Assembly (NCBI GenBank): GCA_015057615.1
Contig: SVEA01000055.1
Span: forward strand, 1-33,621
Origin: Lachnospiraceae bacterium
GTDB lineage: Bacteria; Bacillota; Clostridia; Lachnospirales; Lachnospiraceae
Reading direction: 5' to 3'
DNA: 33,621 bases
The notes beneath the pieces are model-generated. The model was not told the origin of the DNA. It did no database searches and saw only the letters and a program-made list of their open reading frames with translations. Shown here one piece after another: positions 1,089 through 33,621 of this stretch. How positions within the stretch are numbered: the first letter of the stretch is position 1; every line of letters begins with the position of its first letter. Both the position numbers and the translations under genes were made by a program.

Positions 1089-3203
<2,115 letters not shown>

Positions 3204-7224: not shown

Positions 7225-7488
7225 ATAGGAGTAAGCTTCGTCAATTTGCACATTTTATGTGTTGATAAGTACAATCCTCGTAAAGGTGTGGAATTTGCAA
7301 CAGGGGCGGGGGTATCTTGCAATTTCATCTTGTTTTGTTCAACTCACTCTATGATTTTGCAATTTTAAAACACACCTTAATATGAAACGTATTAAAATAT
7401 GGTTTCCTATTACTTAAGTATTTCCTTGGTCTGTGCAAATTGAAGAAGCCGATTTGTTAAGAAGGCTTTTTACAATCAAATTAATATT
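7225..7488. repeat. Family B foldback element, divergent copy
   Basis: The left arm (GCTTCGTCAATTTGCAC, then GTTGATAAGT) and the right arm (TTTCCTATTACTTAAGT, CTGTGCAAATTGAAGAAG, GATTTGTTAAGAAGGC) are clearly family B. The interior (about 7272-7380) does not match the other copies. It holds a different imperfect hairpin, GAATTTGCAA with TTGCAATTTC, around a G-rich loop. The terminal TCAAAAGCC motif is lost on the left. It fills most of the divergent gap between the flippase gene and iscR, so it borders both promoters. Confidence 0.65.
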
Positions 7489-11124: not shown

Positions 11125-11186
11125 GAAAGGCTATGATAAGATACCTGCAATAGTAAGCCAGCAGGTAATTTGTCACAGCCCTTTTT
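11125..11186 (+). terminator. Rho-independent terminator of mnmA
   Basis: A long stem with outer AAAGG-CT and AGCCCTTT arms and inner perfect TACCTGC / GCAGGTA arms, ending in CTTTTT. The stem is about 23 positions with few mismatches. It ends the nifS-mnmA transcription unit. Confidence 0.8.
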
Positions 11187-11187
11187 A

Positions 11188-11360
11188 TCGTATAGGAAAT
11201 TGCGTCCTATACGACAAAAAACCTCCATGCGAACATAGTTTGCATTGGGATGACGTACTCAGCACGTAACGAATACTTGAAACATGTATTCGTAAGGTAT
11301 TTATCTGCCTGCGGCAGAACGCGCTCGGCACGAGAGTTTGCCAAGGCAAACTTTGCTACT
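11188..11360. repeat. Family A modular palindromic element, long copy
   Basis: A mosaic of hairpins in order: TCGTATAGGA / TCCTATACGA (loop AATTGCG), a GCGAACATAGTTTGC segment, CGAATAC / GTATTCG, CTGCCTGCGGCAG, and GAGTTTGCC / GGCAAACTT, ending GCTACT. Other copies lie at 16046-16140 (short) and 25371-25510 (inverted). The frames across it are not genes. Confidence 0.75.
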
Positions 11361-16003: not shown

Positions 16004-16045
16004 AAAAGGGCGGGAGTGTCAATACATCCCGTCTTTTACTTTTTT
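16004..16045 (+). terminator. Rho-independent terminator of gdhA
   Basis: AAAAGGGCGGGA pairs with TCCCGTCTTTT (11 pairs including G-U) around a 10-nt loop and is followed by ACTTTTTT. The T-run merges into the family A repeat that starts at 16046. Confidence 0.85.
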
Positions 16046-16140
16046 CGTCGTATAGGAAATTGCGTCCTATACGACAAAAAACGCTCCGCTAAGGAACGCG
16101 CTCGGAGCAAGAGTTTGCCAAGGCAAACTCTTTGCTACTA
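16046..16140. repeat. Family A modular palindromic element, short copy
   Basis: It contains the TCGTATAGGA / TCCTATACGA hairpin, then GCTCCG / CGGAGC around AAGGAACGCGCT, then the perfect GAGTTTGCC / GGCAAACTC hairpin, ending TTTGCTACTA. The middle modules of the 11188 copy are missing. It is inserted against the gdhA terminator. The rest of the gap to 16243 shows a run of nine C (16196-16204) and no gene. Confidence 0.8.
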
Positions 16141-17294: not shown

Positions 17295-19763
17295 ATGAAT
17301 AAAGAAACGGTTAAGATAACCGGGATGACCTGTGCAGCATGTGCGCAGAGAATTCAAAAATCAGTGAGTAAGCTGGATGGAGTTAACGAAGCCAATGTTA
17401 ATATTGCTACGGAGAGGTTATCGGTCGAATATGAGGAAAGTAAAGTTTCTAAGGCTAAAATACAGGAAGTAGTTGAGAAGCTGGGATATGGAATTATTTG
17501 GGAAAAAAAGACGAATTCGGTTACCATTCCTATCGGCGGGATGACTTGCGCGGCTTGTGCCCAAAGGATTGAGAAAATATTAAATAAATTGGATGGTGTT
17601 GAGAAAGCCTCCGTTAATTTAGCAACCGAGAAGGCAACTGTTGTGTATGATCCGCAGGTTGTCCGTCTCTCGGGAATAAAAAAGAGCATCGAAAAGCTCG
17701 GATACAAGGCACTCGATATCGAGCAGGAAGGAACCATTGATCAGGATAAGCTTCGTAAGCAGAAAGAGATTAAAACCTTACGGACCAAATTTATTGTGTC
17801 CCTGATATTTGCGGTTCCCTTACTCTATTTTGCGATGGCGCCAATGGTATCCTGGTGGCCGTTTCCAATACCGGAATTTTTTGCCCCGATGATGCATCCG
17901 CTCAGGTATGCGATTCTGCAGCTGACCTTAGTTACTCCGATTATTATCGCCGGCTACCGTTTCTATACGGTCGGCTTCCGTGCCTTGTTGCAAAGAAGCC
18001 CGAACATGGATTCCTTAGTGGCAATCGGTACCTCGGCAGCCATGATATACAGTATTTACAATACCTTTGAAATTGCAGGCGGGAATCCCCATGCCGTAAT
18101 GGGACTGTATTATGAATCTGCAGGGGTTATCATCACCTTGATTCTTCTTGGAAAATCCTTAGAGGCGGTATCAAAAGGAAAGACCTCCGAAGCGATTAAG
18201 AAGCTGATTGGTCTCGCTCCTAAAACCGCGATTGTGATTCAGGACGGGAAGGAAATTGAGGTTCCTATTGAAGAGGTAGAAATCGGAGATGTCATAGTGG
18301 TAAAGCCAGGCGATAAAATTCCGGTAGACGGTGTGGTTCTTGAGGGAACAACAGCTATTGATGAAGCAATGCTTACTGGGGAAAGCATGCCGGTGGGTAA
18401 GAAAACCGGGGATCCGGTATATGCAGCAAGTATTAATAAGAATGGGATGATCCGGTTTCAGGCAACGAAGGTAGGAAAAGATACCGCATTGGCACAGATT
18501 ATTAAATTAGTGGAGGACGCACAGGGCTCCAAAGCACCGATTGCGCAGATCGCGGATATTGTATCCGGCTACTTTGTACCAATTGTTGTTATTATCGCAA
18601 TCGTTGCATTTGCAGCCTGGATGATTTCTGGGCAGTCCCTTGCCTTCTCCTTAACCATCTTTATCTCCGTGCTGGTTATCGCCTGCCCCTGTGCGCTGGG
18701 GCTTGCCACACCGACCGCAATCATGGTCGGAACCGGTAAGGGTGCAGAGAACGGTATCCTATTTAAGGGTGGAGAGGCTTTGGAAATGACCCATAAGATT
18801 ACTACGATTGTATTTGATAAGACAGGAACGATTACCGAAGGAAATCCGGAGGTAACGGATATTATTCCTACCCCCGGCTCAGACCGGAATAAATTATTGC
18901 AGTTAGCAGCTTCCGGAGAGAAGGGGTCGGAGCATCCGCTTGGTGATGCAATTGTTAGGGGTGCAGAAAAGGAAAACCTGGAGCTTTTAAGGGTGGAGCA
19001 ATTTGAAGCCATTCCTGGTCACGGAATTAAGGTAATCCTGGAGTCAAAGGAAGTACTCATCGGCAATAAGAAGCTAATGAAGGATAGAGAGATTGCCTTA
19101 AATGAGCTAAGTGCCAGATCGGATCAGTTAGCCGGGGAAGGCAAAACACCGATGTATGTTGCAGTAGATCATAAGCTTGCCGGAATCATTGCGGTTGCCG
19201 ATGTGGTGAAGGAAGGCAGTGCAAAGGCAATTCAGAAGCTTCAGGAAATGGGAATCGAGGTTGTCATGATTACCGGTGATAACCGTAAGACTGCCGAAGC
19301 GATCGCTAAGCAGGTAGGCATCTACCGCGTTCTTGCAGAAGTGCTGCCGCAGGATAAATCCAATGAGGTTAAGAAGCTGCAGGCAGAAGGTAAAAAGGTA
19401 TGTATGGTCGGTGATGGAATCAACGATGCCCCTGCTCTGGTGCAAGCGGATGTAGGTATGGCAATCGGTTCCGGTACGGATGTGGCGATGGAATCCGCGG
19501 ACATTGTTCTTATGCGAAGTGATTTGATGGATGTGCCGACGGCAATTCATTTAAGCAGGAGAACCATACGCAATATCAAAGAGAATTTGTTCTGGGCATT
19601 CGGTTATAATACGGCAGGCATTCCGATTGCGGCAGGCGTTCTCTACCTCTTTGGCGGACCGCTGTTAAGCCCAATGTTTGCAGCAGCGGCAATGTCCCTA
19701 AGTTCGGTTTCGGTTCTTACCAATGCGTTAAGATTAAAGAGATTTAAACCATATCATGAATGA
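17295..19763 (+). CDS. copA: Copper-exporting P1B-type ATPase CopA
   Basis: Pumps Cu(I) out of the cytoplasm at the cost of ATP. The protein is 822 aa. Two N-terminal heavy-metal-binding domains carry GMTCAACAQRI (Cys13/Cys16 and Cys85/Cys88). Eight transmembrane helices are expected. The transport-site CPC motif is Cys464-Pro-Cys466 in ACPCALGLATP. The phosphorylated residue is Asp508 in DKTGTIT. The actuator motif is LTGESMPV, the nucleotide-binding SEHPLG follows, and GDGINDAPAL is the hinge. All signatures of the Cu(I) class are present. GGGAG precedes the ATG. The TGA stop overlaps the first bases of a family B repeat, which separates copA from copZ. Confidence 0.96.
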   Translation: MNKETVKITGMTCAACAQRIQKSVSKLDGVNEANVNIATERLSVEYEESKVSKAKIQEVVEKLGYGIIWEKKTNSVTIPIGGMTCAACAQRIEKILNKLDGVEKASVNLATEKATVVYDPQVVRLSGIKKSIEKLGYKALDIEQEGTIDQDKLRKQKEIKTLRTKFIVSLIFAVPLLYFAMAPMVSWWPFPIPEFFAPMMHPLRYAILQLTLVTPIIIAGYRFYTVGFRALLQRSPNMDSLVAIGTSAAMIYSIYNTFEIAGGNPHAVMGLYYESAGVIITLILLGKSLEAVSKGKTSEAIKKLIGLAPKTAIVIQDGKEIEVPIEEVEIGDVIVVKPGDKIPVDGVVLEGTTAIDEAMLTGESMPVGKKTGDPVYAASINKNGMIRFQATKVGKDTALAQIIKLVEDAQGSKAPIAQIADIVSGYFVPIVVIIAIVAFAAWMISGQSLAFSLTIFISVLVIACPCALGLATPTAIMVGTGKGAENGILFKGGEALEMTHKITTIVFDKTGTITEGNPEVTDIIPTPGSDRNKLLQLAASGEKGSEHPLGDAIVRGAEKENLELLRVEQFEAIPGHGIKVILESKEVLIGNKKLMKDREIALNELSARSDQLAGEGKTPMYVAVDHKLAGIIAVADVVKEGSAKAIQKLQEMGIEVVMITGDNRKTAEAIAKQVGIYRVLAEVLPQDKSNEVKKLQAEGKKVCMVGDGINDAPALVQADVGMAIGSGTDVAMESADIVLMRSDLMDVPTAIHLSRRTIRNIKENLFWAFGYNTAGIPIAAGVLYLFGGPLLSPMFAAAAMSLSSVSVLTNALRLKRFKPYHE

Positions 19764-20068
19764 TATGAGTGCCAAAAGCTGGTTTATAAAATTACTTCAT
19801 CAATTTGCACAATTTATGTATTGATAAGTAATTAGGAAACATATTTCATTCGCAACATATTGTTCTCAGAGTGCTGCATAAAACGCAGCGCAAAGCATTG
19901 CAAAAAATGTAATATTTGGGTTGAAGTACGTAATGGTACATAAGACCACAAAATACGTGATTTAAGTACCAACGACTTCAAACAGTTGCTCATTAAAGTA
20001 TTGCTTCCTATTACTTAAGTTTGTTCTCGATTTTGTGCAAATAGAAGAAGGCTTTTAACACTCAAATC
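19762..20068. repeat. Family B foldback element, full copy 1
   Basis: Left end GATATGAGTGCCAAAAGC and right end GGCTTTTAACACTCAAATC are imperfect inverted repeats. The arms continue inward: AATTTGCACAA on the left and TTGTGCAAAT on the right, then TAAGTAATTAGGAA and TTCCTATTACTTAA. The core has three hairpins: GCTGC / GCAGC, GCATT / AATGT, and TTGAAGT...GGTAC / GTACC...ACTTCAA with a long loop. There is no open reading frame for a transposase. The left end starts within the copA stop codon. Confidence 0.85.
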
Positions 20069-20156
20069 AAGAATTTGACGAAATAAATTGCTTGGGTGTT
20101 GGAAGCTCGTAACGGTTCCGCATCCAGCCATTAAAAATTAAAGGAGGATTTCTAAT

Positions 20157-20363
20157 ATGGAAAATACAATCATTCATGTAAACGGTATGTCATGCCAGCA
20201 TTGCGTAAAAGCTGTTACGAACGCCGTTGGTGCTTTAAACGGTGTCAGCGATGTTGAGGTGGATCTAAAGGCAAAGACGGCAACCGTAGGGTTTGACAAG
20301 GAGAAGATTACCTTGGATAAAATCAAAGCAGCAATTGAAGACCAGGGCTATAATGTGGTCTAA
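20157..20363 (+). CDS. copZ: Copper chaperone CopZ
   Basis: A 68-aa heavy-metal-associated domain protein that carries Cu(I) to CopA or CsoR in the cytoplasm. The metal motif is GMSCQHCVKAV with Cys13 and Cys16. The beta-alpha-beta-beta-alpha-beta pattern fits the whole length, which is the normal CopZ size. The Gln-His between the Cys pair is typical of CopZ rather than of the CopA domains. AAAGGAGG with good spacing precedes the ATG. It lies 393 bp after copA, with a complete repeat in between, and has a strong terminator. It may depend on read-through from the csoR promoter or on a promoter at the repeat edge; none was clear. Confidence 0.93.
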   Translation: MENTIIHVNGMSCQHCVKAVTNAVGALNGVSDVEVDLKAKTATVGFDKEKITLDKIKAAIEDQGYNVV

Positions 20364-20404
20364 AGCAGATAAGAGAAGCGTTATGTAGAAATAACGAGCA
20401 CCGT

Positions 20405-20457
20405 AAGGAGCTGATGCAAAGCCTAACAGAATTGGCGGAGCAGCAGCTCCTTTTTTT
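20405..20457 (+). terminator. Rho-independent terminator of copZ
   Basis: AAGGAGCTG pairs with CAGCTCCTT; the 3' arm runs into seven T. The loop of about 30 nt is unusually long but includes a further GC pairing option. Confidence 0.75.
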
Positions 20458-20538
20458 CTTAAGAAATTCTTTTGAAAATTCTCCAAATTATATTATTGAC
20501 ATATAATATTATATGGTATATAGTATTGTTGATTTCAT

Positions 20539-20853
20539 AATATTGATTTGAGTGTCAAAAACCGATTAATAAACCACTTTCGTCAATTTGCGCAATTTAT
20601 GTATTCACAAGTCGTAATATGAAGCCTGTTTTATTCGTAACACGTTGTTGCACAAAGCATTGCAAAAAACGCAATACTTGGATTGAAGTACATAATGGTA
20701 CATAAGACCACAAAATACATGGCCTAAGTGCCAACGATTTCAAACAGTTGCTCATTAAAATATGTTTTATATTACTAGTGCTTTTTCCTCGATTTGAGCA
20801 AATTGATGAAGACTATTTGTTAAGAAAGCTTTTGACTCTCAAATCAATATTAG
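20539..20853. repeat. Family B foldback element, full copy 2
   Basis: The ends are perfectly complementary over 15 bases (TAATATTGATTTGAG at 20539-20553 and CTCAAATCAATATTA at the right), longer than in other copies. Core hairpins match copy 1, including the long-loop form with AAGACCACAAAATAC. It sits between the copZ terminator and padR in the same orientation as copy 1, only 470 bp away. The padR frame runs upstream into it but has no start signal there. Confidence 0.85.
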
Positions 20854-21203: not shown

Positions 21204-22198
21204 TGTCAAAGATAGATTTTATGAAAGAGCTTGAAAGCCTACTATCGGATATCCCCAGTGATGAAAAAGAGGAAGCGCTCCAGTATTATGCGGATTATTT
21301 TGAGGATGCCGGAGAGGAGAATGAGGAAGCAATCATAGGGGAATTAGGTTCACCGGCAAGAGTAGCCTCCATTATAAAAGCGGAGCTTGGCGGCAATTCC
21401 TCTGAGTGTAATAGGGGGGTTTTTACGGAGAAAGGATACCAGGATACAATTCTTCCAGACGAGAAGTATGAAATCGTTGGTTCCGAAAGGCAGGAAGAAG
21501 ACGAGGCTCCTGCCGGGAAAGCAAGGATGAAGCCGGAAGAAAGCACCTCTCTGGAGGTATCTAAAATTTCAAATGATCAAGCGAAAAATCAGGATGGAGC
21601 CAGATACCGTAATCCGCAGGGAGAGCACCAGGCGAACGACGGATACCGTAATTCACAGGGAGATTACCGGGCGAACAATGGATACAGCAGGTCGCAAGGC
21701 GGGCAACAGGCGAACGACGGATACCATAATTCACAGAGTGGACAACGGGCGAACAATGGATATAATGGGTCGCAAAGCGGGCAACAGGCAGATGACGGAT
21801 ACCGCAGGCAGCAGGAAAGCTATAAGAAGAATACGAATATTGGCTTAATTATTCTGCTCTGTATTCTGGCAATTCCGGTTGGGCTTCCTGTACTGGCTAC
21901 TATCTTTGGCATCACAGTTGCTTTACTTGCCACTATATTCGCTCTATTCATTGGTTTCGGTGCTGCGGGTCTTGCCTTGATGGGAGTCGGCGTCGCACTT
22001 GTAATCGCCGGTATTATAAAACTCGGGATTCCGTTTATCGGATTTGTGCTGTGCGGAGTTGGTTTGCTTAGTCTCGGATTAGGAATGCTGCTTGTAATGT
22101 TAACCGGTTTTATCGGGAAAACAGTATTTCCGGCGATCGTAAGGGGCATTGTGAATATCTGCAGGCTGCCATTTAAGAACAGGAGCGTGACGGCATGA
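21203..22198 (+). CDS. HAAS-domain (DUF1700) membrane protein with 13-residue repeats
   Basis: Probable partner of the upstream PadR. The N-terminal HAAS domain (about 3-63: MKELESLLSDIPSDEKEEAL, then YYADYFEDAGEENEEAIIGELG) is the form usually found next to PadR regulators. A charged linker follows. Residues about 135-205 consist of five and a half tandem 13-residue units built on YRNSQG..RANDG. The C-terminal third holds three to four hydrophobic helices rich in Gly, Ile and Leu, then a basic tail. The 331-aa length is greater than simple HAAS proteins because of the repeats. AGGGG precedes the ATG, which overlaps the padR stop. The next gene starts inside this gene's stop codon (ATGA). Confidence 0.88.
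   Translation: MSKIDFMKELESLLSDIPSDEKEEALQYYADYFEDAGEENEEAIIGELGSPARVASIIKAELGGNSSECNRGVFTEKGYQDTILPDEKYEIVGSERQEEDEAPAGKARMKPEESTSLEVSKISNDQAKNQDGARYRNPQGEHQANDGYRNSQGDYRANNGYSRSQGGQQANDGYHNSQSGQRANNGYNGSQSGQQADDGYRRQQESYKKNTNIGLIILLCILAIPVGLPVLATIFGITVALLATIFALFIGFGAAGLALMGVGVALVIAGIIKLGIPFIGFVLCGVGLLSLGLGMLLVMLTGFIGKTVFPAIVRGIVNICRLPFKNRSVTA
21605..21799 (+). repeat. 39-bp in-frame tandem repeat
   Basis: Five units of 39 bp start at 21605, 21644, 21683, 21722 and 21761, and a partial sixth follows at 21800. They encode 13-residue Gln/Asn/Gly/Tyr-rich repeats. Alternate units are most alike (QANDG versus RANNG), which suggests growth by duplicating a 78-bp pair. Copy number may vary among strains. 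Confidence 0.85.
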
Positions 22199-23433: not shown

Positions 23434-23451
23434 ATTTGCGCTCACCTGCTT

Positions 23452-23745
23452 GATATGAGTGTTAAAAGCCGATTTATAAAACTAACTTCATCAATTTCAC
23501 AATTTATGCATTGATAAGTAATAGGAAACATATTTCATTCGCAACACATTGTTTCCAAAGTGCTGCATAAAACGCAGTGCCAAGCATTGCAAAAAATGCA
23601 ATACTTGATTGAAGTACGTAATGGTACGTACCAACGACTTCAAACAGTTGCGCATTAAAATATTGTTTCCAATTACTTAAGTTTTACCTTGCTTTGTAAA
23701 AATTGATGAAGACGATTTGTTAAGAAGGCTTTTAACACTCATATC
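23452..23745. repeat. Family B foldback element, full copy 3 (short-loop form)
   Basis: Left end GATATGAGTGTTAAAAGCC and right end GGCTTTTAACACTCATATC are perfect inverted repeats of 19 bases. Arms and core match copy 1, but the tip of the third hairpin is deleted: GTAATGGTAC runs straight into GTACCAACG. It lies between the pspC terminator and the 3' end of cheY. Confidence 0.85.
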
Positions 23746-25370: not shown

Positions 25371-25510
25371 TAGTAGCAAAGAGTTTGCCTTGGCAAACTC
25401 TCACGCCGAGCGTGTTCTGCCATGGGCAGATAAATACCTTACACACGAGTGCGCATCCTTAGCGGAGCGTTTTTTGTCGTATAGGACGCAATTTCCTATA
25501 CGACAAAAAA
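25371..25510. repeat. Family A modular palindromic element, inverted copy
   Basis: In the opposite orientation to the 16046 copy: TAGTAGCAAAGAGTTTGCC with GGCAAACTC, then TCTGCC / GGGCAGA, then TTAGCGGAGCG and TCGTATAGGA / TCCTATACGAC with A-runs. The middle module is intermediate in length. It forms the 5' flank of argS and would lie in the argS leader if transcription starts at the TATAAT just upstream. Confidence 0.8.
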
Positions 25511-25586
25511 TATTTTTAGGCTAATGACAATTAAGATCATCTATGATAAAGTATTGTTTAAGTTAGGAAGAGAACTGGAGGTCAAA

Positions 25587-27435: not shown

Positions 27436-27723
27436 ATAGGAGTGTCAAAAGCCTTCTTAACAAATCGTCTTCATCAATTTGCATAAATCAAGGTAAACCA
27501 TAAGTAATGGGAAACAATATTTTAATACGCAATTGTTTGAAGTCGTTGGCACTTACCATTACGTACTTCATTCCAAGTATTGCGTTTTGTGCAATGCTTT
27601 GCGCTGCGTTAATACAGCACTTTGGGAGCATGTGTTACGAATGAAATTTATATTATATTACTTATCAATACATTGTGCAAATTGACGAAGTTGGTTTATA
27701 AATCGGCTTTTAGCACTCATATC
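27436..27723. repeat. Family B foldback element, full copy 4 (inverted, short-loop form)
   Basis: It begins ATAGGAGTGTCAAAAGCC, then TTCTTAACAAATCGTC (the reverse of the other copies' right end), and ends CGGCTTTTAGCACTCATATC. The core is in reverse orientation and lacks the tip of the third hairpin, as in copy 3. It lies between argS and pyrC and ends only 23 bp before the pyrC start codon, so pyrC transcription must begin within or across it. Confidence 0.85.
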
Positions 27724-27746
27724 ATAGAATGGAAAGGAAGAAACCG

Positions 27747-29111: not shown

Positions 29112-29143
29112 CATAAAAAAGCTGCGCGGAAATGAGGTTAAAG

Positions 29144-30085
29144 ATGATTAATACATTAATTAAGAAAATTGAGCAGTTAAGTGCACCGCTGGTGGTTGGT
29201 CTGGATCCGATGCTTAACTTTATTCCGGAACAGATATTGCAGCGTGCGTACAGCGAAAAAGGGGAAAACCTGGAGGGTGTGGCTTCTGCTATCTGGGAAT
29301 TTAATAAAGGAATCATTGATGCAGTCTATGACCTTATTCCCGCCGTGAAGCCGCAGATCGCAATGTATGAGCAGTTCGGTCTGGAAGGACTGAAGGTATA
29401 TAAGCAGACCATTGATTACTGTAAGGAAAAAGGTCTTGTTGTTATTGGAGATGTAAAGCGCGGAGATATCGGCTCAACATCCGCAGCCTATGCAACCGGA
29501 CATCTTGGGAAGATAACGATGGAAGGCAGGGATTACAGAGGATTTGACGAGGATTTTATTACGGTGAATCCGTATCTTGGCTCGGATGGGATTCTACCTT
29601 TTATTGATGTGTGCAAAGAGGAGAAGAAAGGGTTGTTCGTATTAGTTAAAACATCGAATCCTTCCAGTGGAGAGTTTCAGGATCAATTGATCGGCGAGAG
29701 GCCGCTGTATGAATTGGTCGGAGAAAAGGTAGCAGAGTGGGGCAGGCTTCATATGGGAGACTCCTATAGCTATATCGGAGCAGTCGTTGGTGCAACCTAT
29801 CCGGAAGTAGGCAGAGCACTTCGTAAAATTATGCCGAAAACCTACCTTTTGGTACCAGGATATGGAGCGCAGGGAGGAAAAGCAGAAGATCTGGCGGATT
29901 ATTTTGATAAGGATGGATTGGGAGTCATCGTGAACTCCTCCCGAGGAATCATTGCTGCATACAAACAGAAGGGGTATGAGAAATTCGGTCCGCAGGCTTA
30001 TGCGGACGCTTCCAGACAGGCTGTAATCAACATGAGAGAGGATTTAAAGAAGGCTTGGTTAAAAACAGATAAAAACTTAAGATAG
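29144..30085 (+). CDS. pyrF: Orotidine 5'-phosphate decarboxylase
   Basis: Decarboxylates OMP to UMP, the last step of de novo UMP synthesis. From this start it is 313 aa, the longer class typical of clostridia and actinobacteria. The catalytic Asp-Lys-Asp set is visible: Asp103, Lys105 and Asp108 in IGDVKRGDIGST. VVGLDPML at the N-terminus and LVPGYGAQGG near the C-terminus contact the phosphate. The ATG at 29144 is preferred because GAGG lies upstream of it; the ATG at 29132 has no site. It lies 89 bp after pyrC. Downstream is the large hairpin at 30120 and then the convergent ppiB. Confidence 0.94.
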   Translation: MINTLIKKIEQLSAPLVVGLDPMLNFIPEQILQRAYSEKGENLEGVASAIWEFNKGIIDAVYDLIPAVKPQIAMYEQFGLEGLKVYKQTIDYCKEKGLVVIGDVKRGDIGSTSAAYATGHLGKITMEGRDYRGFDEDFITVNPYLGSDGILPFIDVCKEEKKGLFVLVKTSNPSSGEFQDQLIGERPLYELVGEKVAEWGRLHMGDSYSYIGAVVGATYPEVGRALRKIMPKTYLLVPGYGAQGGKAEDLADYFDKDGLGVIVNSSRGIIAAYKQKGYEKFGPQAYADASRQAVINMREDLKKAWLKTDKNLR

Positions 30086-30119
30086 AAACTTAACAAGTAT
30101 TATTGCAATAAAATAAAAA

Positions 30120-30288
30120 TGATACAAGGAGGTCTGTGATCTTCCTGTAATGCACTGTTTGAAAGACAGATTGTTTATTTTGTGTGACATAAGCGAACAA
30201 ATTTACATTTGCACGATAGTGGCATACAAAATGAATGACCTGTCTTTCGACCTGTGTGTGAAGGAAGGTCATTGGCCTCCTTGTATCA
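30120..30288 (+). ncRNA. Long imperfect hairpin, candidate structured RNA
   Basis: The whole 169-nt stretch folds on itself. Bases 30120-30146 pair with 30262-30288 (26 of 27, the first 13 perfect: TGATACAAGGAGG with CCTCCTTGTATCA). Then 30152-30169 pairs with 30240-30257, including GAAAGACAG with CTGTCTTTC. Then 30171-30190 pairs with 30219-30238, and CAAAT / ATTTG closes a four-base loop at 30203-30206. Read on the plus strand, about ten pairs are G-U and only about two are A-C. The minus strand would show the reverse, so selection for a plus-strand RNA fold is suggested. On the minus strand the stem is followed by TTTTTATTTT, so it could instead terminate ppiB. Confidence 0.55.
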
Positions 30289-30314
30289 ATCGCAACCTAA
30301 ATTGCAATAGCTTT

Positions 30315-30839
30315 TTAGAATTTTTCCGGTTCCGCATACGTTGCACCGTAGGTTTCTACCGTTACTTTCTCCATAATCTGCGGCTCTAAGGGCACATCGG
30401 AGTAGTTTGTCTTTGTCTCAGCTATTTTATTTACGACATCCATTCCCTCGGTAACTTTGCCAAAAGCAGCATAGGAACCATCAAGATGGGGTGAATCCTT
30501 ATGCATGATAAAGAACTGGGAGCCTGCGGAATTCGGATGCTGTGATCTTGCCATAGAAATAACGCCGGCTTCATGCTTTAAGTCATTCATAAAATTGTTA
30601 TAGGTAAATTCCCCTTTGATCGAATAACCCGGACCGCCCATGCCATTTCCATCCGGGTCTCCGCCTTGTATCATAAAACCGCGGATAATCCGATGAAAGG
30701 TCAGTCCGTCATAGAAACCTTTTCTCACGAGTGAAATAAAATTATTAACCGTATTCGGAGCGATTGCCGGGTACAATTCTAATTTCATGGTATCGCCATT
30801 TTGCATTTTGATCGTTACAATTGGGTTTTTGTCTGCCAT
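30315..30839 (-). CDS. ppiB: Peptidyl-prolyl cis-trans isomerase, cyclophilin type
   Basis: Speeds cis-trans isomerisation of Xaa-Pro bonds in folding proteins; cytoplasmic, with no signal peptide. The 174-aa single cyclophilin domain includes the catalytic segment TFHRIIRGFMIQGGDPDGNG (Arg, Phe, Gln). GVISMARSQHPNSAGSQFFI and HLDGSYAAFGKV are further active-site motifs. It is preceded by a very good promoter and AAAGGAAA before the ATG. It interrupts the pyrimidine genes on the opposite strand; no functional link to them is known. Confidence 0.95.
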   Translation of the reverse strand: MADKNPIVTIKMQNGDTMKLELYPAIAPNTVNNFISLVRKGFYDGLTFHRIIRGFMIQGGDPDGNGMGGPGYSIKGEFTYNNFMNDLKHEAGVISMARSQHPNSAGSQFFIMHKDSPHLDGSYAAFGKVTEGMDVVNKIAETKTNYSDVPLEPQIMEKVTVETYGATYAEPEKF

Positions 30840-31043: not shown

Positions 31044-31220
31044 TCAATTTGCACTGTAGGAAAACGATTTTAATTCGCAACCGTTTGAAGTTGTTGGTAC
31101 TTAGACCCACGTATTTTGTGGTCTTATGTACCATTACGTACTTCAAACCCAAGTATTGCGTTTTTTACAACGCTTTGGGGAACACGTATTGTGAATTAAA
31201 ATAGTTTCATATTACTTGAT
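31044..31220. repeat. Family B core without terminal repeats (inverted, long-loop form)
   Basis: Contains CAATTTGCAC, CGCAACCGTTTGAAG, the third hairpin with the AAGACCACAAAATAC tip in reverse, TTGCGTTTTTTACAA and TTCATATTACTTGAT. Neither GAGTGTCAAAAGCC end is present. It fills the divergent gap between ppiB and yjbQ. Confidence 0.75.
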
Positions 31221-33485: not shown

Positions 33486-33571
33486 AAGTGAAATGCATGG
33501 ATTGGTTGTGTGAATGTTCACGGATCGGAATGTATAATAGATGGGAATGGGTTTAAACGATAGTCAAATTT

Positions 33572-33621
33572 GATTTGAGTGTCAAAAGCCGATTTATAAA
33601 CCAACTTCGTCAATTTGCACA
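33572..33621. repeat. Family B foldback element, copy cut by the window end
   Basis: GATTTGAGTGTCAAAAGCC, GATTTATAAACC and TTCGTCAATTTGCACA match the left arm of the other copies. The rest lies outside the window. A possible -10 box TATAAT lies upstream at 33533-33538 with a poor -35. Confidence 0.8.

What the first reader, a model, noticed from the sequence alone, without database searches (positions are those of the whole stretch)
30120..30288. 169-nt near-continuous hairpin with plus-strand G-U bias
Almost every base between 30120 and 30288 pairs with a partner around a four-base loop at 30203-30206. About ten pairs are G-U on the plus strand while only about two A-C oppositions would be G-U on the minus strand. 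A decaying DNA palindrome should give equal numbers, so an RNA made from the plus strand is suggested. It is unlike both repeat families here and lies downstream of pyrF. A competing reading is a large terminator for ppiB, because TTTTTATTTT follows the stem on the minus strand.
Basis: partly seen in the sequence, partly recalled or inferred. Interest (0 to 1): 0.7.

Follow-up and report, generated by a model that had tools for sequence, protein, structure and literature searches.

The report
Mobile giant hairpin in terminator slots
The long hairpin is one of dozens of copies of a small mobile DNA element that sits where genes end and probably stops transcription from both sides; its ends resemble those of a known type of jumping gene that targets such spots, and its core keeps a fold on one strand as if it had to work as RNA.

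Summary
The hairpin at 30120-30288 is real (plus strand -89.2 kcal/mol, z -13.2; minus strand -63, z -7.3). It is not single: 39 further places in this genome, at least 80 copies in a complete congener genome, and model matches in 29 of 34 genomes of the genus. No Rfam family fits. The unit is about 210-300 nt: a core with conserved TAATGCACTGTTTG and CTGTGTGTG inside arms ending GGGGCTGTTGC/GCAACAGCCCC. Helices covary strongly. Copies sit at gene 3' ends, core in either direction, without convincing target duplications. At pyrF-ppiB, 7 of 11 relatives read carry an ordinary terminator hairpin in that slot and one carries the element. The ends match an intact IS1182-family insertion sequence in a congener, and IS1272 of that family is reported to replace terminator stem-loops without target duplication. 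Best reading: an IS1182-type non-autonomous element (MITE) living as a two-way terminator, with a core constrained on one strand, possibly as RNA. Mobilisation by IS1182, termination and core function are inferred; the transposase is absent from many genomes that have copies.

The parts
29132..30085 (+). pyrF-type orotidine 5'-phosphate decarboxylase gene, converging from the left
   Evidence: PF00215, 87.2 bits; open frame
30099..30109 (+). Degenerate outer 5' arm (ATTATTGCAAT), counterpart of GGGGCTGTTGC..AAT in better kept copies
   Evidence: Read from the sequence and the alignment of copies
30110..30119 (-). T-run TTTTTATTTT on the minus strand directly after the hairpin, possible terminator tail for ppiB
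   Evidence: Sequence; not tested; simple scan negative
30120..30288 (+). Inner rod-shaped hairpin of the element, loop 30203-30206
   Evidence: Folding and shuffles; copies; model R1 match 30133-30276, 121.6 bits plus strand, 64.2 bits minus strand
30148..30161 (+). Conserved core segment TAATGCACTGTTTG
   Evidence: Conserved across copies of the genus
30182..30228 (+). Conserved apical part (GTGTGACATAAGCGAACA..GATAGTGGCATAC)
   Evidence: Alignment A1
30252..30260 (+). Conserved core segment CTGTGTGTG, opposite TAATGCAC
   Evidence: Alignment A1 and pair counts
30301..30316 (+). Degenerate outer 3' arm (ATTGCAATAGC, 30301-30311) followed by TTTTT (30312-30316), possible terminator tail for pyrF
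   Evidence: Sequence and copies; termination not tested; simple scan negative
30315..30839 (-). ppiB-type cyclophilin peptidyl-prolyl isomerase gene, converging from the right
   Evidence: PF00160, 171.8 bits; open frame

Best explanation
The hairpin is one copy of a family of small non-autonomous mobile elements (MITE-like) spread over a genus. Each copy is a long rod-shaped inverted repeat. Its arms end in GGGGCTGTTGC/GCAACAGCCCC or variants, often flanked by an A-run and a T-run, and act as a two-way intrinsic terminator; its core has a fixed strand-specific fold, most likely needed as RNA. Copies were placed at gene 3' ends by an IS1182-family transposase that recognises these ends and targets or replaces terminator stem-loops, leaving no target duplication. 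The unit can later turn round in place, and some copies lose the core and remain as plain hairpins. Shown from sequence: the family, the fold, the covariation, the 3'-end position, the core in either direction at the same slot, no convincing target duplications, and matching ends on an intact IS1182-type insertion sequence. Inferred: that such a transposase moved the copies, that the arms terminate transcription, that the reversal is inversion in place, and that the core works as RNA.
For: Dispersed copies. Covariation: 371 two-sided cells against 141.6 shuffled, slid controls 31.5-47.5% paired against 85.9%; 176 two-sided compensatory cells in 76 G006 copies. Position: 33 convergent, 41 tandem, 2 divergent of 76, background 17, 97, 29 of 143; 34 of 41 tandem copies nearer the upstream stop. 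Same slot holds an ordinary hairpin in 7 of 11 relatives read by eye and the element in L017. Target duplications near shuffled level, flank-to-flank complementarity 8 of 54 against 0.4 expected. IS1182-family insertion sequence with ends GGGGCTGTCGC/GCGACAGCCCC in G006, three copies; G015 relative with right end GCGACGGCCCC; DUF772 fragment beside a GGGGCTGTTGCAAAA end in the own genome. IS1272 of this family is reported to target terminator hairpins, delete the stem-loop, leave no duplication and enter one terminator in both orientations (PMC5678879, PMC4923244). Core G-U:A-C 208:94, distal arms 20:35.
Against: The transposase is not co-distributed with the copies: homologues of the 544-aa protein in 3 of 34 genomes (one as fragments); DUF772 in 10 of 34 and absent from G012, G026, G031, G014, G027 and G004, all with 10 or more model matches; PF13751 absent from the own genome. 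The shared ends are only about 11 nt with one difference. Four of 54 copies have a direct repeat of 5 or more bases against 1.2 expected. A simple terminator scan of the window slot found none. The strand bias was absent in the first own-genome count (20:20), is weak in G012 (17:14), and by distinct pair types is 85:58 in sum; the cells are not independent, and these alignments are fitted to the model.
Confidence: 0.6

Rival explanations
1. Plain palindromic MITE: only the DNA inverted repeat and terminator function matter. The core has no RNA role; its G-U bias was inherited from the founding copies and is inflated by alignment to the model.
For: First own-genome count 20:20; G012 17:14; distal arms without bias (20:35); core direction indifferent to gene direction, 18 with and 23 against; core lost in four G006 places while arms stay.
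Against: Derived changes still favour G-U 121:45 in G006 and 56:31 in the own genome; two adjacent wobble pairs stay wobbles in 58 and 46 of 60 rows; mutation bias in unpaired columns runs the other way.
Confidence: 0.4
2. The element is moved by another enzyme: a Y1/HUH transposase as for REP elements, an IS110 recombinase, or a reverse transcriptase.
For: Weak target duplications, strand-specific pairing and hairpin targets would fit some of these; IS110 and reverse transcriptase genes exist in G006.
Against: None is co-distributed: Y1_Tnp absent in G004, G030, G014, G031, G026 and G027, which have 10-34 model matches; RVT_1 absent in G012, G026, G031; IS110 above its cut-off in only 8 of 34 genomes and absent in G012 and G030. 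The same weakness applies to IS1182. Matching ends were looked for and found only for IS1182-type copies.
Confidence: 0.2
3. A host RNA family or giant terminator that evolved in place at each gene end, without mobility.
For: Copies share slots between species (24 locus pairs) and the structure covaries.
Against: Near-identical copies at unrelated places in G006; one copy nested inside the ends of another at G006 1836898; direction random at shared slots, 10 same and 14 opposite; ordinary hairpins in the same slot of relatives.
Confidence: 0.05

Closest known systems
IS1182-family insertion sequences, especially IS1272 and TnSha1 (PMC5678879: abstract and passages; PMC4923244: passages)
   Same: End sequence type as found here on the G006 IS1182 copy; insertion at terminator hairpins; no target duplication; repeated use of one terminator in both orientations
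   Different: The element codes for no transposase and is itself a complete hairpin; deletion of the target stem-loop was not shown here
IS1182-related MITEs of Methanosarcina acetivorans (ISMac2-type, 160 and 169 bp; PMC3852290, one passage)
   Same: Short non-autonomous relatives of the same IS family, similar size, several copies
   Different: Archaeal; sequence not compared here; no structured core or terminator slot mentioned in the passage seen
ERIC, Correia/NEMIS, BOX, SPRITE and QMITE2 repeats (review PMC10969869, passages; further details recalled)
   Same: Dispersed intergenic repeats whose transcripts fold into stable hairpins; some sit at 3' ends or look like terminators
   Different: Other hosts; sequences not compared here; whether they show the one-strand core covariation was not checked

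Membership tests
MITE (non-autonomous inverted-repeat element) | Short, non-coding, many dispersed copies | tested here: met
   at least 80 copies in G006 (76, 4 more)
MITE (non-autonomous inverted-repeat element) | Terminal inverted repeats | tested here: met
   GGGGCTGTTGC/GCAACAGCCCC-type ends recognisable in 54 of 76 G006 copies; degenerate in the window copy
MITE (non-autonomous inverted-repeat element) | Target site duplication (usual, not universal) | tested here: not met
   4 of 54 with 5 or more bases, 1.2 expected; absence is what IS1272-type transposition predicts
IS1182-derived MITE | Ends shared with an autonomous IS1182-family element in the same genome | tested here: met
   G006 only: GGGGCTGTCGC against GGGGCTGTTGC; own genome has a degraded DUF772 remnant with such an end
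IS1182-derived MITE | Transposase present where copies are | tested here: not met
   DUF772 in 10 of 34, close homologues in 3 of 34, copies in 29 of 34 genomes
IS1182-derived MITE | Mobilisation by the transposase | not testable with these tools
   Needs a transposition assay
Intrinsic terminator | G+C-rich stem followed by a U-run at a gene 3' end | tested here: inconclusive
   Position and T-run enrichment in G006; simple scan negative for the window copy; termination itself not testable here
Known Rfam RNA family | Match at the gathering score | tested here: not met
   None in the window; 8 related loci at E up to 1 gave 21 matches, 20 to microRNA families and one to rli51, all below gathering
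REP/RAYT elements | Co-occurring Y1 transposase | tested here: not met
   Absent from six genomes with 10-34 model matches

The most novel reading that the evidence does not exclude
A mobile terminator element carries a conserved small RNA: 80 or more scattered copies in one genome keep the same plus-strand fold with two conserved, wobble-containing segments, so a selfish unit has spread an RNA device to the ends of many genes, and the unit flips in place so that the RNA can be read from either side.
Probability: 0.25. Interest if true: 0.78.

Novelty: new variant of a known kind. Interest (0 to 1): 0.52.

Why it matters
If right, this is a bacterial element family that limits harm to its host by settling in transcription terminators and acting as one, and that keeps a strand-specific fold by compensatory change across a genus. 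With dozens of copies per genome it is a natural test case for structure-directed transposition by IS1182-type enzymes and for whether mobile repeats carry working RNAs. It also shows that strong covariation and G-U bias do not by themselves mark a single-locus RNA gene.

Tried and rejected
Rfam at gathering in the window and at E up to 1 in 8 related loci gave nothing usable. PF13751 in the own genome: none. Y1_Tnp, IS110 and reverse transcriptase as movers: not co-distributed; IS1182 fares little better and is preferred for its matching ends and reported behaviour. A search for further element ends in G006 that might flank an unknown autonomous partner gave 37 hits (18 forward, 19 reverse, up to 3 mismatches); the 8 regions that I did not recognise were fetched and were four further copies and four stem-only hairpins. 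The order-wide model search (295 genomes, strict filters, 11 candidates scored per genome) matched the own genome and two weak hairpins of another genus without CTGTGTGTG. RNAalifold with default settings gave a sparse structure of 25 pairs; the 58-pair structure used later came from relaxed RIBOSUM settings on the same alignment after dropping six rows. A first self-alignment with loose scoring ran into random flank and was replaced. Alignment A1 holds 61 of the 62 copies selected by core length (L192 left out); copies whose anchors were missing or whose core was short or long were not used there. Papers: search listings; none of the listed titles describes this repeat; that library lacks most subscription journals.

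Full report
Observation. The plus strand of 30110-30300 folds into one rod with the four-base loop at 30203-30206, -89.2 kcal/mol, z -13.15, none of 200 shuffles as good. The minus strand gives -63 kcal/mol, z -7.30.

It is a repeat. BLAST in its own genome gave 73 pieces, which I grouped into this place and 39 others; two of these, L121 and L122, show the same sequence. In 61 genomes (own plus 60 relatives) 14 had matches, all of the same genus. A covariance model R1 built from 61 aligned copies matched 29 of 34 genomes of the genus, own included, at E up to 0.01, two of them only at E above 0.001. Match numbers there were 62 in the own genome, 93 in G012 and 96 in G006, where 96 was also the number scored; both strands of one hairpin may be counted, as they are, where 58 matches are 35 distinct places. 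In G006, 76 distinct copies were analysed and 4 more turned up. An even sample of 400 kb of G006 held 7 distinct copies, which scales to about 73 per genome. G012 is probably Mobilitalea sibirica: its contig C23 has the same length as a contig of that record. Of 295 genomes drawn from the order, only the own genome and two of another genus matched under strict filters; those two are weak (42-53 bits) and lack CTGTGTGTG.

Anatomy. From outside in: often an A-run, an arm GGGGCTGTTGC or variant, a variable helix, the segment TAATGCACTGTTTG, a variable helix, an apical part GTATGnCAnAAGCGAACA..TGTTCGATnATGGCATAC, the returning helices with CTGTGTGTG, the arm GCAACAGCCCC and often a T-run. In the window the outer arms are degenerate (30099-30109, 30301-30311). 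Several own-genome copies lack the apical part in a symmetric way, and four G006 places keep only the arms as a short hairpin.

Structure is constrained. On 60 distinct rows the 58-pair structure has 85.9% of cells paired (shuffled mean 75.6), 371 cells with changes on both sides (141.6) and covariation score 0.326 (0.165); sliding the partners drops pairing to 31.5-47.5%. Helices change in step, for example TTTGAAAG/CTTTCAA, TTTGCCGA/CCGGCAA and TTTGAGCG/CGCTCAA. Among 76 G006 copies, 176 cells have two-sided compensatory changes, against 45 A-C, 88 transversion and 17 two-sided breaks. The structure came from the same alignment and later alignments are fitted to the model, so part of this is built in.

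Strand bias. Over all cells of A1, G-U is 351 and A-C 109, much of it shared by descent. Against each genome's own consensus pair, single changes gave G-U:A-C of 121:45 in G006 and 56:31 in the own genome (35 copies), 17:14 in G012, 8:3 in G026 and 6:1 in G031, in sum 208:94. The earlier count on MAFFT alignment A1 gave 20:20 for 15 own copies, 21:11 for 13 of G006, 19:14, 8:6 and 5:1. By distinct pair types the later counts are 35:22, 23:21, 14:11, 7:3 and 6:1. Cells are not independent, because copies are related. Unpaired columns in G006 show C>T 5, G>A 18, A>G 9, T>C 10, so mutation bias does not explain the excess. In the arms of the same G006 copies G-U:A-C is 94:49 within about 24 nt of the core and 20:35 further out. 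The plus-strand constraint therefore belongs to the core and the helix next to it. Two adjacent wobble pairs stay wobbles: U-G in 58 of 60 and G-U in 46 of 60 rows. This fits RNA, or single-stranded DNA of that strand.

Where copies sit. With a crude open-frame caller (80 codons or more), 76 G006 copies lie in 33 convergent, 41 tandem and 2 divergent gaps; 143 background gaps of at least 100 nt were 17, 97 and 29 (Fisher p 3.9e-7 for convergent and 1.7e-4 for divergent). In tandem gaps the core begins a median 50 nt after the stop codon, and 34 of 41 are nearer that stop than the next start. The core runs with the genes in 18 and against them in 23. Copies thus occupy the terminator slot without regard to core direction.

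The window slot. pyrF and a cyclophilin gene converge here. Of 80 related pyrF loci fetched, 32 were searched with R1 and one, L017, has the element. Of 11 slots read by eye, L009-L015 (7) hold an ordinary hairpin, L017 the element, and L016, L018 and L019 have other surroundings. On the minus strand the window hairpin is followed at once by TTTTTATTTT; on the plus strand the outer arm is followed by TTTTT. A simple terminator scan found none here, but it allows only loops of 3-8 bases.

How copies arrive. Ends were recognisable in 54 of 76 G006 copies. Direct repeats of 5 or more bases occur in 4 (1.2 expected). Flanks are complementary to each other beyond the ends in 8 (0.4 expected). T-rich and A-rich flanks are enriched, 20 and 25 of 54 against 4 and 8 further out. 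G006 has three nearly identical insertion sequences with a 544-aa transposase that scores as IS1182 family (324.1 bits, cut-off 270; PF13751, PF01609, DUF772). They end GGGGCTGTCGC/GCGACAGCCCC; two lie after an A-run, and the joined flanks of the third fold as a hairpin before a T-run. G015 has a 70%-identical transposase, and that copy's right end reads GCGACGGCCCC. The own genome keeps a DUF772 fragment near a GGGGCTGTTGCAAAA end. IS1272 of the IS1182 family is reported to target terminator hairpins, remove stem-loop sequence, leave no target duplication and enter one terminator repeatedly in both directions (PMC5678879, abstract and passages; PMC4923244, passages); a large survey reports IS1182 over-represented between convergent genes (PMC9208149, passages). 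Against this, the transposase is missing from many genomes with copies: DUF772 in 10 of 34, close homologues in 3 of 34.

Turning in place. Among 24 locus pairs with an orthologous neighbour beside the element (5 own-genome against G006, 11 other loci against G006, 8 other loci against own), 10 have the core the same way round and 14 the opposite way; some loci occur in more than one pair. In the close pair L180/L125 (neighbour proteins 93-95% identical) the reversed segment seems to include some 20 nt of flank, which points to inversion in place rather than a second insertion. This was read from the alignment by eye.

Verdict. The feature is a MITE-like, terminator-dwelling hairpin element with IS1182-type ends and a strand-constrained core. 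The kind is known; the combination of terminator slot, full hairpin form, genus-wide covariation and one-strand core bias is one I did not find described in the listings and passages seen.

Noticed in passing
window 11182-11222, 16042-16082, 25469-25511: Three near-identical palindromes of about 41 nt (TTTTTGTCGTATAGGA...TCCTATACGACAAAAAA type), another hairpin repeat family.
   Followed up: no
window 1113-1165, 7236-7486, 19760-20849, 23450-23745, 27436-27725, 31069-31184, 33570-33621: A longer intergenic repeat family, pieces in both orientations.
   Followed up: no
window 21564-21797: 39-nt tandem repeat in a region with overlapping open frames.
   Followed up: no
L094, L096, L109, L114, L126 (own genome): A short hairpin insert of the type TAGTCTCGCAAAAAACCTGCGAGACATT lies inside or at the edge of several copies of the element, suggesting nested insertion.
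   Followed up: no
L257 1501-1638, L258 1501-1638 (another genus): One weak R1-like hairpin (53 and 42 bits) in each of two species, lacking CTGTGTGTG.
   Followed up: partly
L305 1836-2138 (G006): Two cores in tandem within one pair of outer arms.
   Followed up: no
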